From assembly GCA_000632805.1 (NCBI GenBank), contig CP007444.1, forward strand, positions 3,212,772 to 3,276,771: a stretch of 64,000 nucleotides of DNA. Direction: 5' to 3'. Positions 2 through 4,679 of this stretch are shown here, piece after piece (within the stretch, counting starts at the first letter, position 1; every line of letters begins with the position of its first letter). The position numbers were made by a program, and so were the translations under genes. The notes below the pieces were generated by a model, which saw nothing but the letters and a program-made list of their open reading frames with translations, had not been told where the DNA came from and did not search any database. This DNA is from Dyella jiangningensis. GTDB lineage: Bacteria; Pseudomonadota; Gammaproteobacteria; Xanthomonadales; Rhodanobacteraceae.

Positions 2-1498
2 CATGAAATCGCCGCCACTGCCACAGCCGCCGACCTCGCCGATGCCGGCACGCCGGTGCACATCGAAGTGGTGATGAAACTGCAGAACCGTTCCACGCTC
101 GACGACTTCATCGCAGCCTCGCACAACCCGAACAGCGCGGCCTACCACAGCAAGCTCAGCGCGTCGGATGCCGTCGCGATGTTCTCCCCCAGCGCCGCGC
201 AGGTGCAGGCGGTGGTCGATCACCTGAGCAAGGCCGGCTTCAGCCACATCACGGTGGCGCCGAACCGCATGCTGATCTCCGCCGATGGCAATGCCGGCGC
301 CGCGCAGGCCGCTTTCGCTACCCGCCTGATCAAGGCGCATGATGCCGAGGGTCGCGATGCCTACGCCAACATTGATGACGCCAAGGTGCCGGCGGAGCTC
401 GCCGATTCCGTGCTCTCCGTCGTCGGCCTGCAGACCGTGTCGCACGCGCACACCATGCTCAAGCCGGCCGATCGCATCGGCACCCATGCCACCACCGGCG
501 TGACGGGTCATAACCCAACCACCTTCCCCACCATCTACAACGCCGGCAGCACGCCGACGGCCTCGACCATCACGGTGGGCATCATCAGCGACGGCGACAT
601 GACGCAGCCGCTGAAGGACCTCACCGCCTTCACCACGGCCAACAGCCTGCCGGCCGTCAACACGCAGGTGATCGTGGTCGGCACGCCCGGCACCGACACC
701 AGTGGCACGCCGGAATGGGACCTGGACAGCCAGGACATCGTCGGCATGTCGGGCGGCGTCGGCAAGCTGATCTTCTACGCCGCCAATTCGCTCAGCAACA
801 GCGCGCTGACCGCGGCCTACAACCAGGCCGTCAGCGACAACCAGGCGCGCGTGATCAACGTGTCGCTCGGTGAATGCGAAACCAGTGCCTACAACGACGG
901 TTCGATGGCCGCCGACGACCAGATCTTCGCGCTGGGCGTATCGCAGGGTCAGACGTTCTCCGTGTCTACCGGCGACTCCGGCTCCAACGAGTGCACCAAG
1001 GCACCGCGCGGCACCACGCCGAGCTATCCGGCGAGTTCGCCGTACGTGGTGGCGGTCAGTGGCACCACGCTCACCACCGGCACCGGCACCGGCAACAGCT
1101 GGGCTGGCGAAACGCTGTGGTCGAAGGCTGGTGGCAGCCCGAGCACGGTCGAACCGAAACCGAGCTGGCAGACGCAGGGCGGCGGCACCACGCGTGACGT
1201 GGCCGACGTCGCGATGGATGCCGATCCGAACTCGGGCTCCATCATCATCGTCAACGGCAGCAACGCGCAGTACGGCGGCACCAGCCTGGCCGCGCCGCTG
1301 TTCGCGGCCACCTGGGCGCGCATGCTCGCCGGACATTCCACGCTGGGCTTTGCCGGTCCGCATCTGTACCAGGTGCCGACCAACAGCTACCACGACATCA
1401 CGTCGGGCAGTAACGGTGGCGAAACCGCGACCGTCGGTTGGGATTACGCCAGCGGCTTCGGCAGCACGATCGTGACCAATCTCAACAGCAATCTCTGA
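2..1498 (+). CDS. S53 (sedolisin/kumamolisin-type) serine-carboxyl peptidase, 5' end outside window
   Basis: Secreted endopeptidase of MEROPS family S53, active at acid pH in characterised members. The reading frame is open to the left edge, so the true start and signal peptide lie outside. Counting from the GTG at 56, residues about 1-130 resemble the activation prodomain and the rest is the subtilisin-like catalytic domain. The sedolisin Glu/Asp pair is in EWDLD (E about 220, D about 224), the oxyanion Asp is in STGDSG, and the nucleophile is in GGTSLAAP (Ser about 410). A calcium-loop-like segment, GWDYASGFG, is at the C-terminus. No C-terminal extension (such as PKD or P-domain) follows. 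The family is certain; the substrate cannot be told. Confidence 0.93.
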   Translation, partial: HEIAATATAADLADAGTPVHIEVVMKLQNRSTLDDFIAASHNPNSAAYHSKLSASDAVAMFSPSAAQVQAVVDHLSKAGFSHITVAPNRMLISADGNAGAAQAAFATRLIKAHDAEGRDAYANIDDAKVPAELADSVLSVVGLQTVSHAHTMLKPADRIGTHATTGVTGHNPTTFPTIYNAGSTPTASTITVGIISDGDMTQPLKDLTAFTTANSLPAVNTQVIVVGTPGTDTSGTPEWDLDSQDIVGMSGGVGKLIFYAANSLSNSALTAAYNQAVSDNQARVINVSLGECETSAYNDGSMAADDQIFALGVSQGQTFSVSTGDSGSNECTKAPRGTTPSYPASSPYVVAVSGTTLTTGTGTGNSWAGETLWSKAGGSPSTVEPKPSWQTQGGGTTRDVADVAMDADPNSGSIIIVNGSNAQYGGTSLAAPLFAATWARMLAGHSTLGFAGPHLYQVPTNSYHDITSGSNGGETATVGWDYASGFGSTIVTNLNSNL

Positions 1499-1524
1499 AG
1501 CCGTTGACGCAAATGTAAGCACGC

Positions 1525-1557
1525 GGGGCCTTCGCATCGAAGGCCCCGTTTTCTTTT
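1525..1557 (+). terminator. Rho-independent terminator of the S53 peptidase gene
   Basis: A perfect 10-bp stem (GGGGCCTTCG / CGAAGGCCCC) with a 3-nt loop is followed by GTTTTCTTTT, 27 bp after the peptidase stop codon. Confidence 0.9.
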
Positions 1558-1604
1558 GGCGAGAAAACAAAATGCGGCACGCGCGAACAACCACATGCTT
1601 GGCT

Positions 1605-1642
1605 CACAACAAAACACCACCGCTCTTTCGGGCGGTGGTGTT
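1605..1642 (-). terminator. Terminator of the RcnB-like gene
   Basis: An 11-bp perfect stem AACACCACCGC / GCGGTGGTGTT, read on the minus strand, runs into TTTTGTTGTG just after the minus-strand gene that stops at 1666. It lies tail to tail with the terminator of the peptidase gene. Confidence 0.8.
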
Positions 1643-1665
1643 GGCGAGCCATGCGGTGGTGGCGA

Positions 1666-2070
1666 TCAGAAACCGGCGGCGATATCGATGACCACGCCGC
1701 TGGAAATCAGCGTCAGGTAGAACTGGCCGCCATCGGCGCGCACCCAGCGGTAGCCCGGATCCGGACGGCGCAGGTGATACCGCTCGTAGTCGGTGACGTA
1801 GTAGTCGCGCGAATAGTAGTAGTCCGGCAGGCGGTCGCCCTTCTTGTACCAGCCCTTGTGCTTGCCGTTGTCGTGGCGCCCCTCGTCCTTGGGATTGTGC
1901 CCGCGGCCCTGGCCGCCGTCGTCCCAACGGGCATCGTCATCGTTGCCGCCGCCATTACCGTTGCCGTTGCCATGGCCGTTTCCGTGGCCGTGCCCCTGCG
2001 GCGAGGCAAGGACCACTCCGCTGCCTGCGAGCAGGGCTGCCGCAACGACGAATGAAAATAGGCGCTTCAT
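1666..2070 (-). CDS. RcnB-family periplasmic protein with Gly/His/Asn repeat
   Basis: 134-aa exported protein. The start at 2070 was chosen because GGAG lies 7 nt upstream and the first residues (MKRLFSFVVAAALLAGSG) form a signal peptide; the open frame extends further up without a better site. A Gly/His/Asn/Asp-rich segment (about residues 27-55, GHGNGHGNGNGN type) precedes the C-terminal RcnB domain, recognisable by GDRLPDYYYSRDYYVTDY, then YHLRRPDPGYRWVR, ending in a GVVIDI strand. RcnB of E. coli is a periplasmic factor in nickel/cobalt homeostasis; metal binding here is only inferred. Transcribed divergently from the repeat protein at 2501. Confidence 0.82.
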   Translation of the reverse strand: MKRLFSFVVAAALLAGSGVVLASPQGHGHGNGHGNGNGNGGGNDDDARWDDGGQGRGHNPKDEGRHDNGKHKGWYKKGDRLPDYYYSRDYYVTDYERYHLRRPDPGYRWVRADGGQFYLTLISSGVVIDIAAGF

Positions 2071-2500
2071 GTTGACTCCGTACAAGGCGTGGAAATGTTC
2101 GATGGGCGCCGCCGTATTGAACTCAGCCGGCGCGGCGACAACATCGCACAAAAATTCGACCTGCGCGCCACGCGTCCTAAGGAAACGCTAAGCGAAGTCG
2201 CTATTTCCTCGCCCTCATTACGCTTCCACGCACACAGCTTCACGCAAGAAAACCCCTTGTTTTCTGCGACTTCGCGCACGGAAAGAACGGCTCCTTGACT
2301 GGCTGCTGAAGGATTTTTTTCTGGTTGCTGAACTTGCGCGCGCGCACTCTTTTCTTGCGCCGTCGAGTCCGCCAGTATCCGCGACCGAGGCCGTCGGGTG
2401 AGCATGCGTTTGCAGCACTACCGCGCGGCAGATGCGGAGTTCATCTGATGCCCTTGCGGCGCCTCGAAGGGAACGAATCATCACCTTCAAGGGGCAATCG
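2071..2500. other. Divergent intergenic region (430 bp)
   Basis: Spacer between the RcnB-like gene and the divergent repeat-protein gene; it must hold both promoters. A short AAAAC/GTTTT hairpin sits at about 2249-2264 and the region is less GC-rich than its surroundings. No convincing gene or named operator was seen. Confidence 0.5.
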
Positions 2501-3229
2501 ATGAAAAAGCACGTACATGTACTCACCGCGTTGAGCGTGGCCGTTGGCCTGTGCATGGGCAGCTCGCTGGCGTTGGCCGACACCGCGCCGACCACGCAGA
2601 CCGCACCGACGAGCGGACAGGAAAGCACCAAGCTCGCCTCCTCCTACACCACGTTCGCCGGCTCCACCACCAACGCACAGGCGCTGGTCACGGGCCTGCG
2701 CAGCGGCACCGCCATCGTGCTGGTGACGCCGGCAACGGCGACCACGCCTGCCGTGCAGACCACCTTTACCCCGACCACGGGCCAGATGGGCTACGGCAAC
2801 GTCAACATTTCGCTGGCGCTGGCCCAGGCCGAGCTGACGGCGGCTGGCATCACGCAGCCGACGGCTGCGCAGCTCGAAGCCGCGTTGAACGGCGGCACGG
2901 TGACCGGTCCGAACGGCCCGGTGCAACTCACCGGCGTGCTCGCGCTGCGTGCCGATGGCCAGGGCTGGGGCAACATCGCCAAGGCGCTGGGCTTCAAGCT
3001 GGGCGAAATCATGAGCGCCGCCAAGGCCCATGGCCCCGTGCCGGATAGCGCCGACATCGCGCACGGCGAAAAGACCGACAAGGCCGGCCACGCCGACAAG
3101 GCGGACAAGGTCGCCAAGGCCGACCATCCCGACAAGGCCGACCGCCCGGACAAGCCGGATCATCCGGACAAGCCCGAAAAGCCGGAAAAGCCCGAGCGCC
3201 CCGACAAGCCCGAGCACGGCGGCCGCTGA
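2501..3229 (+). CDS. Exported protein of unknown function with Lys/Pro/Asp repeat tail
   Basis: 242 aa. The start has an AAGGGG ribosome site 6 nt upstream and gives a clean signal peptide (MKKHVHVLTALSVAVGLCMG ... LALA|DT). The middle (about 30-175) is Thr/Ala/Gly-rich with predicted structure, including a segment GWGNIAKALGFKLGEIM that reads as an amphipathic helix. The last 60 or so residues are a degenerate repeat of HADKADK, HPDKAD and RPDKPD units passing into KPEKPE, charged and proline-rich, of the kind seen in periplasm- or wall-spanning linkers. I do not recognise the family. It may be cotranscribed in part with the barrel gene at 3306, through the intervening terminator. Confidence 0.8.
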   Translation: MKKHVHVLTALSVAVGLCMGSSLALADTAPTTQTAPTSGQESTKLASSYTTFAGSTTNAQALVTGLRSGTAIVLVTPATATTPAVQTTFTPTTGQMGYGNVNISLALAQAELTAAGITQPTAAQLEAALNGGTVTGPNGPVQLTGVLALRADGQGWGNIAKALGFKLGEIMSAAKAHGPVPDSADIAHGEKTDKAGHADKADKVAKADHPDKADRPDKPDHPDKPEKPEKPERPDKPEHGGR

Positions 3230-3252
3230 TAACAACAATTCTCGACTTGCGT

Positions 3253-3284
3253 GGAGGCCTCTCTTGGGGCCTCCCGTTTCTTTT
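3253..3284 (+). terminator. Intercistronic terminator/attenuator
   Basis: GGAGGCC / GGCCTCC, a 7-bp stem with an 8-nt loop followed by CGTTTCTTTT, between the repeat protein and the barrel gene. It would end or attenuate transcription between the two. Confidence 0.7.
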
Positions 3285-3305
3285 GCTACGCCCTAGGAAG
3301 AACTC

Positions 3306-4154
3306 ATGAATCTGAAGAACACCAGCACCCTATGCGCCCTTGGCGTTCTGGGCCTGATGGCGCAGGCAGCGCATGCCGATGACAGCTCGACCGTCAAGGT
3401 CGGCGCCGGCATCGACTACACCACCGGCAAGTACGGCACGTCGACCACGACCGACATCACGCAGGTGCCGGTGACCCTCGGCTACGAGATCGACAGCTGG
3501 TCGTTCAAGCTGGACGTGCCGTACATCCATGTGTCCGGTGCCGACAACGTCATCCCTGGCATTGGTCCGGTGAAGAACAACAACCCGAACGGTCGCGGCA
3601 AGGGCAAGGGCAACGGTAACGGCAACTCGCAGGGCGGCGGCACCACGCCGACGACCGCGACGACCGGCTCCGCATCGGGCCTGGGCGACATCACCGCGTC
3701 AGCCACGTACGAGGCCTACACCAATAGCGCCGCGCAGTTCGGCATCGATCTCACCGGCAAGATCAAGTTCGGTACGGCCGACGAGAACAAGGGCCTGGGC
3801 ACCGGCAAGAACGACTACACCTTCAGCGTCGACACGTACAAGGGCTTCGGCGCGTGGACCGTGTTCGGCGGCGTGAGCTACACCTGGCTCGGCAGCTCGC
3901 AGTACATCCAGCTCAACGACGTGTTCGGCGCCAACGTGGGCGCGAGCTACAAGCTCGACACGCACAGCAGCTTCGGCGCGTACTACGACTACCGCGAGAA
4001 GGCATCGGACACCAGCTTCGCGCGCAACGAACTCACCGGCTACTACGCCTACAAGTTCGCCAGCGGCTGGAAGGCCCAGGCATACGTGACCAAGGGCTTC
4101 ACCGACGGCAGCCCGGACTGGGGTGTCGGCGCGACGGTCGTTTACTCGTTCTGA
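3306..4154 (+). CDS. Outer-membrane beta-barrel protein (MetA-pathway/transporter-like)
   Basis: 282 aa. A signal peptide (MNLKNTSTLCALGVLGLMAQ ... AHA|DD) is followed by alternating amphipathic strands (VKVGAGIDYTTGKYG, VPVTLGYEIDSWSFKLDVPY) and a final strand ending in VVYSF, the terminal aromatic typical of BAM-assembled barrels. Organisation resembles the phenol-degradation MetA-type transporter family. An inserted Gly/Lys/Asn run (GRGKGKGNGNGNSQGGG, about residues 95-115) probably forms a flexible surface loop. A GGAAG ribosome site precedes the ATG. The substrate is unknown. Confidence 0.75.
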   Translation: MNLKNTSTLCALGVLGLMAQAAHADDSSTVKVGAGIDYTTGKYGTSTTTDITQVPVTLGYEIDSWSFKLDVPYIHVSGADNVIPGIGPVKNNNPNGRGKGKGNGNGNSQGGGTTPTTATTGSASGLGDITASATYEAYTNSAAQFGIDLTGKIKFGTADENKGLGTGKNDYTFSVDTYKGFGAWTVFGGVSYTWLGSSQYIQLNDVFGANVGASYKLDTHSSFGAYYDYREKASDTSFARNELTGYYAYKFASGWKAQAYVTKGFTDGSPDWGVGATVVYSF

Positions 4155-4200
4155 TCTACCCCCAACGATGTCGTGACAGCATCGGATGCGGGCTTCACGG

Positions 4201-4226
4201 CGGCGCCTTCGGGCGCCGTTCGTGTT
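4201..4226 (+). terminator. Terminator of the barrel gene, probably bidirectional
   Basis: CGGCGCC-TTCG-GGCGCCG, a 7-bp stem with a stable UUCG-type tetraloop followed by TTCGTGTTT. It abuts the stop codon of the convergent SRPBCC gene at 4227. Confidence 0.75.
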
Positions 4227-4679
4227 TCAGGTACGCGACTCGACGTATCGCTTGAATACCTCGAGCGTTCCTGCCCAGTAGAACCGGAGGTGATGATAGA
4301 TCGACGCCGTGGGAAAGCCGCTGGCTGAGAGCGACAGCAGCGTGCCGTCGCCCTCCGCTTCCATCACGAAATCGAGCGTGGTGTGGTTCGACGGCTGCGC
4401 CGGCAAGCCGGACAGCGAACTGAGATGGCTGTACGCCAGCCGCTTCATCGGTTCGAAGGCCAGCAGTAGGCCTGCATTTTCAAAGGGCACATGGTGAATG
4501 CCGCGCACGACGAAGCGGCTACCCACCTGCCACGTGGTTTCCACGTGCACGTGCATCGATGGATCGCCCATCCATGCGCCCATGTGCTCGCTGGATGCGA
4601 AATTGCTCCACGCCATCGCGACGGGCGCGGCGATCTGCACGACTTCGTTGAAACGCTCGGGAACAACGTTCTCTGGCAT
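4227..4679 (-). CDS. SRPBCC (AHSA1/START-like) domain protein
   Basis: 150-aa cytosolic protein made of a single helix-grip fold. The opening motif is VVQIAAPVAMAWSNFASSEHM, followed by the typical turn WQVGSRFVVRG, the strand pattern ending TTLDFVMEAEGDGTLLSLSASGF and a long C-terminal helix (LRFYWAGTLEVFKRYVESR). This is the AHSA1-like branch (activator of Hsp90 ATPase homologue), whose bacterial members bind hydrophobic ligands and mostly lack a known role. Convergent with the barrel gene. Confidence 0.85.
   Translation of the reverse strand: MPENVVPERFNEVVQIAAPVAMAWSNFASSEHMGAWMGDPSMHVHVETTWQVGSRFVVRGIHHVPFENAGLLLAFEPMKRLAYSHLSSLSGLPAQPSNHTTLDFVMEAEGDGTLLSLSASGFPTASIYHHLRFYWAGTLEVFKRYVESRT

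What the first reader, a model, noticed from the sequence alone, without database searches (positions are those of the whole stretch)
1666..4154. Three neighbouring exported proteins each with a low-complexity tract
An RcnB-like protein (Gly/His/Asn run), an unknown protein with a Lys/Pro/Asp repeat tail and an outer-membrane barrel with a Gly/Lys/Asn loop sit side by side. The first two are divergent and the last two are separated by an attenuator-like hairpin. Such tracts could bind metal or polyanions or span the periplasm. The set could be an envelope metal- or polymer-handling module.
Basis: inference. Interest (0 to 1): 0.55.

Follow-up and report, generated by a model that had tools for sequence, protein, structure and literature searches.

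The report
Barrel paired with charged-tail export protein
Two of the three neighbouring genes form a conserved pair found in many bacteria, an outer-membrane pore resembling known polypeptide exporters and an exported protein with a regular charged, proline-rich tail that probably uses that pore, while the third gene, a metal-protein relative, sits there only in close relatives.

Summary
Call them A (RcnB-like, 1669-2070 -), B (unknown exported protein, 2501-3226 +) and C (barrel, 3306-4151 +). Of 40 B loci in the family, all 37 with a tail have C directly downstream; the three tail-less paralogs have A instead and no C. A lies beside B in 9 of 13 loci of the window's genus and one related genus, and in 0 of 27 others. 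C is modelled as a 12-strand barrel; its best solved matches are FapF, the Pseudomonas amyloid-polypeptide exporter (Z 24.7), and a COG4313 channel (Z 22.9), but it seems to lack their N-terminal plug. B's tail is a triplet repeat, mostly P-[D/E/Q]-[R/K/H]; no clear solved relative was found for its domain. C relatives elsewhere often sit beside other exported low-complexity proteins, a few with the same tail on another N-terminus. Best reading: C is a dedicated channel for its partner's disordered charged tail, exporting or displaying B. This is inferred, not shown. Main rivals: an RcsF-like plugged complex; a hydrophobic-compound importer. A metal module is poorly supported (no NicO/RcnA match in the genome).

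The parts
1669..2070 (-). Gene A: RcnB-like exported protein, 134 aa (stop codon 1666-1668); a genus-level neighbour, not a constant part of the module
   Evidence: PF11776 E 2.1e-18; beside B in 9 of 13 loci of groups g1 and g19 and 0 of 27 others
1942..1995 (-). Gly/His/Asn run of A
   Evidence: sequence; protein length varies among 9 loci
2071..2500 (.). Divergent intergenic region between A and B; no sigma-70-like site found by the scan
2501..3226 (+). Gene B: exported protein of unknown family, 242 aa (stop codon 3227-3229)
   Evidence: no Pfam family over its cut-off and no NCBIfam family up to E 1; match in 37 of 147 family genomes
2501..2578 (+). Probable signal peptide of B (first 26 residues, ending ALA)
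   Evidence: read by eye from the sequence
2612..3034 (+). Folded domain of B (about residues 38-178), with G[YW]G[NE]V and GWGxIA motifs
   Evidence: predicted structure, pLDDT mostly above 90; alignment A1; no clear solved relative found
3023..3226 (+). Charged tail of B; triplet P/A-[D/E]-[K/R/H] repeats from about 3071
3253..3274 (+). Intercistronic hairpin between B and C
   Evidence: stem of 8 or more pairs in 31 of 37 loci
3306..4151 (+). Gene C: 12-strand outer-membrane barrel, 282 aa (stop codon 4152-4154), PF13557/COG4313/FapF-like
   Evidence: PF13557 33.8 bits; model pLDDT 86; FapF Z 24.7, COG4313 channel Z 22.9
3543..3662 (+). Extracellular loop 2 of C with the Gly/Lys/Asn tract
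   Evidence: model strands and low pLDDT at residues 101-116; sequence

Best explanation
B and C form a two-gene outer-membrane module. Both look Sec-exported. C folds as a 12-strand barrel of the FapF/COG4313 type but has only about 3-6 residues before its first strand, so it probably has no plug of its own. B carries a folded domain followed by a disordered tail built of P-acidic-basic triplets, which would favour an extended polyproline-II rod with one proline, one acidic and one basic stripe. The tail enters the pore of C from the periplasm. C is then the dedicated channel through which B is secreted, or at least its tail is displayed, as FapF does for the disordered Fap subunits. The hairpin between the genes probably lets the cell make more B than C. 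Shown here: the pairing, the order, the triplet rule, the fold similarity, the hairpin, and the joint absence of tail and C in one paralog group. Inferred: the missing plug (signal cut placed by rule), the physical contact, the direction of transport, the location of B and the RNA effect.
For: (1) 37 of 37 tailed B loci have C 67-133 bp downstream on the same strand; 3 of 3 tail-less B paralogs have no C (41 loci fetched, L041 with a tail-only match dropped). (2) In 82 different B domains (rows without room downstream dropped), a run of at least three triplet-spaced prolines goes with C in 66, neither is present in 11, C occurs without such a run in 4 (3 Polaromonas rows with charged VERPEK-type repeats, and L141), the run without C in 1 (L134). 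The tail-less rows form one clade (support 100) inside a Dyella clade (98) whose 12 other rows all have C (quick tree). (3) The 12 B relatives without C have no tail (3), Pro-poor and mostly Gly-rich ends (8), or are L134. (4) Partner swap: beside the C-type barrels of L136, L138 and L144 lie proteins with RPERPQRP/KPEKPEKP/ERPEKPEKP repeats and no B-domain match; the L144 partner has no Pfam match up to E 0.1. L136 and L138 were found by their tails alone in the B-profile search of 274 genomes. (5) Neighbour test at 3.0 bits: 15 of 22 C loci outside the family and 53 of 73 B-type loci (5 loci are in both sets), against 2 of 28 generic PF13557 loci. (6) C's best solved matches are FapF (Foldseek top 18 rows, E 1.5e-13 to 2.8e-11; Z 24.7, rmsd 2.5, 218 aligned). 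(7) 0-6 residues before strand 1 in 37 C rows if the last possible signal cut is used, 0-11 if the first is used. (8) B and C are the only genes found in all 51 loci compared.
Against: No experiment places B outside the cell or inside C. B's domain is predicted well folded and would have to unfold to pass a 10-12 A pore. The COG4313 channel fits the model nearly as well (Z 22.9). C genes without B exist in the family: only 3 of 11 have a low-complexity neighbour at 3.0 bits (one of the 11, L166, lies at a contig end). Two tails have no barrel: L134 (no C-profile match in its 15 kb) and the tail-only match L041 (no C in 15 kb). Independent contrasts on the B tree are too few to test (2 supported pairs, median sign-test p 0.5). 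The neighbour test went through three scoring versions and loses its contrast at looser cut-offs (control 13 of 28 at 3.2 bits); its control comes from one bacterial family, the outside loci are not independent (several share a family), and its automatic caller missed real partners and took spurious frames. Other genes also keep company with the pair in part of the family: biotin-synthesis-like genes in up to 16 of 51 loci and EamA transporters in 18 of 51, both on the opposite strand.
Confidence: 0.45

Rival explanations
1. Plugged complex, RcsF-like: the tail of B threads into C and stays there as a plug or as a surface-exposed sensor or anchor, while B's domain remains in the periplasm. Nothing is secreted.
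For: The same facts as for the best explanation. C has little room for a plug of its own. B's domain is predicted to be folded. [quoted passage not shown]
Against: B has no lipidation cysteine; its mature part has no cysteine at all. Some partners of C relatives look disordered throughout when read by eye (L138, L144), with no obvious periplasmic domain to stay behind.
Confidence: 0.22
2. C is an ordinary COG4313-type channel that takes up a hydrophobic compound, and B is a periplasmic binding or scaffolding protein that helps it.
For: PF13557 above cut-off. COG4313 channel 4rl8 at Z 22.9, rmsd 2.0. OMPdb gives COG4313 as Phenol_MetA_deg (passages).
Against: The recurrent neighbours that were identified are biotin-synthesis-like and EamA genes, not catabolic genes (only the most frequent clusters were looked at). 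C seems to lack the roughly 14-residue N-terminal plug of the solved COG4313 channel (PMC4493636, passages). The partner's N-terminal part is replaceable while its low-complexity character persists, which is odd for a ligand-binding helper.
Confidence: 0.15
3. Three-gene metal- or polyanion-handling envelope module as proposed by the first reader.
For: A is RcnB-like with a His-rich run and lies divergent from B at two loci of this genome (L031, L071). One C relative (L143) lies beside an ORF that looks like a copper ATPase and an exported Lys/His-rich protein (by eye).
Against: A is absent from 27 of 27 B loci outside groups g1 and g19. No NicO/RcnA match in the genome. The B tail has mixed charge rather than a metal-ligand pattern.
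Confidence: 0.06
4. Genetic linkage without functional contact: B and C are co-transcribed envelope proteins that share a stress regulon, and the tail is a generic disordered spacer or cell-wall tether.
For: No direct evidence of contact. C genes without B exist in the family, and two tails occur without a barrel nearby (L134, L041).
Against: The joint absence of tail and C in the paralog group and the partner swaps tie the tail to the barrel.
Confidence: 0.12

Closest known systems
FapF, outer-membrane exporter of the Pseudomonas functional amyloid (Fap) system
   Same: 12-strand barrel fold, best structural match of C; gene partner is an exported, partly disordered protein
   Different: C has no room for the periplasmic coiled coil and helical plug (at most 11 residues before strand 1). 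This genome has a separate FapF-like gene (E 3.1e-23 to solved FapF) beside the genome's only C39 protease match, about 0.52 Mb away. C has no significant sequence match to FapF (profile E 0.13-0.19).
COG4313 / PF13557 (Phenol_MetA_deg) channels such as Pput2725, TcpY, SphA
   Same: C matches the Pfam family above its cut-off and the solved member at Z 22.9
   Different: C seems to lack the barrel-inserted N-terminus. Generic PF13557 genes in the same bacterial family sat beside low-complexity exported ORFs in 2 of 28 loci at 3.0 bits (13 of 28 at 3.2 bits).
RcsF-OMP interlocked complexes
   Same: Idea of a disordered proline-rich segment inside a barrel lumen
   Different: RcsF is a lipoprotein using several OMPs (PMC9907809, start of abstract and passages); B has no lipidation cysteine and travels with its own barrel gene
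GfcD / YjbH double barrels of capsule-type operons
   Same: N-terminal halves are described as FapF-like, and amyloid export was suggested for GfcD (PMC9603273, passages). That their operons also encode a small low-complexity exported protein (GfcA/YjbE) is recalled and comes from no call.
   Different: Those barrels are fused to a polysaccharide-type porin; C is a single barrel
RcnB (PF11776)
   Same: Gene A carries the domain
   Different: No RcnA/NicO match in this genome; A is not a constant part of the module

Membership tests
Fap secretion system / FapF | 12-strand outer-membrane barrel of FapF fold | tested here: met
   Z 24.7, rmsd 2.5, 218 aligned to 5o65
Fap secretion system / FapF | N-terminal periplasmic coiled coil and helical plug | tested here: not met
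   3-6 residues before strand 1 in the window's C, at most 11 in 37 C rows, signal cut placed by rule
Fap secretion system / FapF | fap operon with C39 protease FapD and FapA-E nearby | tested here: not met
   the genome's only C39 match (PF03412) lies about 0.52 Mb away, beside its own FapF-like gene; fapA, B, C and E were not sought by profile
Fap secretion system / FapF | significant sequence match to FapF | tested here: not met
   C profile against PDB: FapF E 0.13-0.19; hhalign of C alignment to own FapF probability 2.5%
Fap secretion system / FapF | trimeric channel exporting amyloid-forming subunits | not testable with these tools
   needs biochemistry
COG4313 / PF13557 channel | Pfam profile match above cut-off | tested here: met
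   33.8 bits, cut-off 22
COG4313 / PF13557 channel | N-terminal segment (about 14 residues in the solved member) occluding the lumen | tested here: inconclusive
   window's C 3-6 residues, relatives 0-6 or 0-11 by two cut rules; too short in the window's C, but some relatives could hold a short one; feature taken from PMC4493636 passages
COG4313 / PF13557 channel | uptake of a hydrophobic substrate | not testable with these tools
   no assay
RcnB (gene A) | PF11776 domain | tested here: met
   66.4 bits, cut-off 25.9
RcnB (gene A) | works with the RcnA (NicO) Ni/Co exporter (pairing recalled) | tested here: not met
   PF03824: 0 matches in the genome at E 0.001, E. coli control positive
RcsF-OMP complex | lipidated N-terminal cysteine | tested here: not met
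   no cysteine in mature B
RcsF-OMP complex | disordered segment threaded through a barrel lumen | not testable with these tools
   needs crosslinking or a complex model

The most novel reading that the evidence does not exclude
A minimal, widespread outer-membrane export or display system of Pseudomonadota: a plug-less FapF-like barrel dedicated to one partner, in which a P-[DE]-[RK] triplet tail (or another charged low-complexity tract) is a transplantable address that delivers unrelated N-terminal domains to the pore. Loss of the tail frees the domain from the barrel, as in the Dyella paralogs.
Probability: 0.3. Interest if true: 0.75.

Novelty: new variant of a known kind. Interest (0 to 1): 0.55.

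Why it matters
Dedicated outer-membrane exporters of disordered polypeptides are few; FapF and CsgG are the examples discussed in the Fap passages read here. PF13557 barrels are described as channels for hydrophobic compounds. A conserved pair of such a barrel with a triplet-repeat tail protein would give part of that family a different function, offer a two-gene model for how disordered chains are taken to a pore, and be a small, engineerable surface-display system. It would also give a testable role to exported charged low-complexity proteins that now carry no family name.

Tried and rejected
Rejected: a three-gene module (A is beside B in 9 of 13 loci of groups g1 and g19 and 0 of 27 others). 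Rejected: C is this genome's FapF (a separate FapF-like gene lies beside a C39 protease). Rejected: the hairpin as a plain intrinsic terminator (only 6 of 37 have a T-rich tract). Rejected: the tract of C as the key element (C of Polaromonas, L131 and L136, all beside a charged-tail protein, lack it). Corrected on rechecking: I first held that nothing but B and C recurs at the loci; in fact biotin-synthesis-like genes (methyltransferase, alpha/beta hydrolase, aminotransferase and BATS/radical-SAM matches) lie convergent to C in up to 16 of 51 loci from 8 of 19 groups, and EamA genes divergent from B in 18 of 51; they are not in the window's A-C neighbourhood, lie on the opposite strand, and are read as synteny.

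Led nowhere: solved relatives of B by sequence (none up to E 1) or fold (Foldseek best E 0.85; VIA best Z 3.9, rmsd 3.0, 65 aligned), which does not show that the fold is new. A look in plasmid records gave 5 partial hits to C at 25-33% identity. The promoter scan of 1400-4400 found no site. Literature: 'Dyella' with 'outer membrane' and 'low complexity' (0 papers), FapF or Phenol_MetA_deg (20 of 209 listed), COG4313/PF13557/MetA (23 listed), FapF-like (4 listed): no listed title or abstract start describes such a barrel-tail pair; only listings and the passages or section named in the report were read.

Scoring history: the neighbour test was run three times with different definitions (windowed entropy plus charge; charge plus proline; entropy alone). 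At other settings: at 0.55, 55 of 73 B loci, 5 of 28 C loci without B, 0 of 28 control; at 3.2 bits, 69 of 73, 17 of 22 outside the family, 4 of 11 in-family without B, 13 of 28 control, so the contrast is lost at loose cut-offs. 'With B' rests on the B profile, which in L136 was matched by the tail alone and in L144 only weakly (E 2.7e-7), its protein having no B-domain by eye. Rows dropped: L041 (tail-only match) from the 41 fetched loci; L127 for lack of downstream sequence; by the same rule. The 51 loci hold at least one genome twice (L050 and L078).
Full report
1. What is there. The window lies in a 5.4-Mb genome; in the scan of named genomes the best matches to its B gene are Dyella sp. 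EPa41 (94%) and Dyella solisilvae (88%). Three genes occupy 1666-4154. A (1669-2070, -) is RcnB-like (PF11776). B (2501-3226, +) is an exported protein with no Pfam family over cut-off and no NCBIfam family. C (3306-4151, +) matches PF13557 above its cut-off. A and B are divergent. B and C run in the same direction with a hairpin between them.

2. The constant unit is B-C. A search of 147 genomes of the bacterial family found B in 37, C in 41 and A-like genes in 83. I fetched 41 loci; one (L041) had only a tail-like match and no B or C at the cut-off used and was dropped. Of 40 B loci, 37 have C after B on the same strand, 67-133 bp away. The other three are short B paralogs (175-176 aa) that end where the tail would begin; all three have a divergent A-type gene and no C. 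A lies beside B in 9 of 13 loci of groups g1 (the window's genus) and g19 (which holds Dyella marensis, by its contig length) and in 0 of 27 others. In 51 loci from 19 groups B and C are in all 51. The next most frequent real neighbours lie on the opposite strand: biotin-synthesis-like genes downstream of C in up to 16 of 51 loci (8 groups) and EamA-type transporters upstream of B in 18 of 51; they are not in the window's A-C neighbourhood. The other large clusters that I checked by position are other frames over B and C. The scan of named genomes brought 59 B loci, many from the same genomes; 53 of 59 hold a C-profile match, among them Dyella, Rhodanobacter, Oleiagrimonas, Polaromonas, Lysobacter and Pseudoxanthomonas.

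3. The tail goes with the barrel. Twelve B relatives with enough downstream sequence have no C: three have no tail, eight have Pro-poor and mostly Gly-rich ends (among them Chitinibacter, a Dechloromonas genome and a myxobacterial genome), and L134 has an RPER-type tail. On 82 different B domains, a run of three or more triplet-spaced prolines and C are both present in 66, both absent in 11, and disagree in 5: three Polaromonas proteins with VERPEK-type repeats, L141, and L134; a scan of 15 kb around L134 with the C profile found nothing. The first version of this count, with a charge-based definition, gave 57 with C and 0 without for charged tails, and 13 and 12 for the rest. Relatedness limits these numbers: C changes at least 5 times on the tree, only 2 of them forced by well-supported branches, and the paired-contrast test cannot reach significance. 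The cleanest event is the tail-less group: a fully supported clade inside a Dyella clade (support 98) whose 12 other rows all have C, so tail and C are missing together.

4. Partner swap. C relatives in samples of 398 genomes of the phylum and 289 of another class were rare: 14 and 7 genomes with a match, three shared, one the window's own. Several lie beside exported low-complexity proteins that lack the B domain: KADK repeats (L142), DR/DK repeats (L145, L148), RRGRGADDGPGD repeats (L153), E/P/V-rich ends downstream (L147, L150, L151, one family), and ERPEKPEKP repeats (L144) (read by eye). From the other side, the B-profile search of 274 genomes brought two proteins by their tails alone (L136, L138); both lie beside a C-type barrel, with RPERPQRP and KPEKPEKP repeats on other N-termini. 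The tail-only match L041 in the family search has no C in 15 kb. An automatic test (exported-looking ORF within 250 bp, lowest 40-residue entropy at most 3.0 bits) counted 53 of 73 B-type loci, 15 of 22 C loci from outside the family (5 loci are in both sets), 3 of 11 in-family C loci without B, and 2 of 28 generic PF13557 loci. The cut-off was chosen after earlier versions, and at 3.2 bits the control rises to 13 of 28, so this is supporting evidence only. In-family C genes without B (L161-L171) show that a partner is not universal.

5. Anatomy. C is modelled with good confidence (pLDDT 86) as a barrel that I read as 12 strands; its Gly/Lys/Asn tract is in the long loop 2, extracellular if the C-terminus is periplasmic, and is disordered. 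Its best solved matches are FapF (Foldseek top 18 rows; Z 24.7, rmsd 2.5, 218 aligned, 21% identity) and the COG4313 channel 4rl8 (Z 22.9, rmsd 2.0, 217 aligned, 15%). FapF carries a coiled coil and plug (PMC5557850, discussion section read; PMC6173800, passages). The COG4313 channel carries about 14 N-terminal residues in its lumen and would have a 10-12 A channel without them (PMC4493636, passages). By rule-placed signal cuts the window's C has 3-6 residues before strand 1, and the 37 aligned C rows have 0-6 (last possible cut) or 0-11 (first possible cut). The pore is therefore predicted to be open unless something else fills it. B has a confidently predicted domain (residues about 38-178) with no clear solved relative found and then a tail. 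In 73 tails, proline recurs every third residue (lag 3: 388 against 83 expected; lag 6: 413 against 78), the residue after proline is mostly D, E or Q, and the next mostly R, K or H. Such a repeat fits a polyproline-II rod with acidic and basic stripes; this is inference.

6. Hairpin. In 37 B-C gaps, 31 have a perfect stem of 8 or more pairs, mostly ending 22-35 nt before C. The sequences differ between genera, 25 of 37 gaps fold better than shuffles by more than 2 s.d. (median z -2.3), and only 6 have 5 or more T in the next 8 bases. A conserved stem without a conserved T-tract suggests an mRNA-end protection or partial attenuation element that raises B over C. This is inferred.

7. Not the Fap system itself. 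The same genome holds a C39 protease (its only PF03412 match) next to a FapF-like gene (E 3.1e-23 to solved FapF) and low-complexity FapB/C-like and FapE-like ORFs (named by order and look, not by a profile), about 0.52 Mb away. C has at most a very distant sequence relation to that FapF. Earlier work noted that FapF profiles pick up a larger family (PMC3792158, passages). FapF-like halves were also reported in GfcD/YjbH, with a suggestion of amyloid export (PMC9603273, passages).

8. Gene A. It is a good RcnB-domain protein, but the genome has no NicO/RcnA match. Its association is with the B domain in groups g1 and g19, at two paralogous loci of this genome. A role in metals cannot be excluded for A itself.

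9. Verdict. A conserved two-gene outer-membrane module, most likely a plug-less FapF/COG4313-type channel with a dedicated partner whose charged triplet tail enters the pore for export or display (confidence 0.45; that B and C work together at all: about 0.85, my estimate). New variant of a known kind.

Noticed in passing
L227:3569-8120 (G000:C1:2687000-2699500): A fap-like operon elsewhere in the same genome: C39 FapD-like gene and a FapF-like protein (E 3.1e-23 to solved FapF) with a long N-terminal part, plus FapB/C-like and FapE-like ORFs named by look.
   Followed up: partly
L031:7659-8976 (G000:C1:853000-868000): A paralogous divergent pair: a tail-less B domain protein and a second RcnB-like gene, without C.
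   Followed up: yes
window 56-1498 +: Pro-kumamolisin activation domain and probable S53 peptidase next to gene A; a match of 96% identity lies next to A in L042 too.
   Followed up: no
L143 (C at 1492-2304 -): A C-type barrel followed by an exported Lys/His-rich protein and an ORF that looks like a copper ATPase: a possible metal context for one relative.
   Followed up: no
L147, L150, L151: C-type barrels followed by exported proteins of A/P/T/V repeats ending in E/P/V-rich stretches, a different low-complexity partner type (three genomes of one family).
   Followed up: no
L212:7595-8224 -: A B-like protein with an RPER-type tail but no C-profile match in 15 kb; neighbours look like RND efflux and ABC transporter genes. 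An exception to the tail-barrel rule.
   Followed up: partly
L034:1177-6369 and 15 other loci: Biotin-synthesis-like genes (BATS/radical SAM, aminotransferase, alpha/beta hydrolase, methyltransferase) run convergent to C in up to 16 of 51 loci; EamA transporters run divergent from B in 18 of 51.
   Followed up: partly
L038:7443-8618 -: Two B-type stretches in tandem in one locus (G129), upstream of C.
   Followed up: no
L161-L171: C genes in the same family without a B gene; most show no clear low-complexity exported partner (L166 lies at a contig end).
   Followed up: partly
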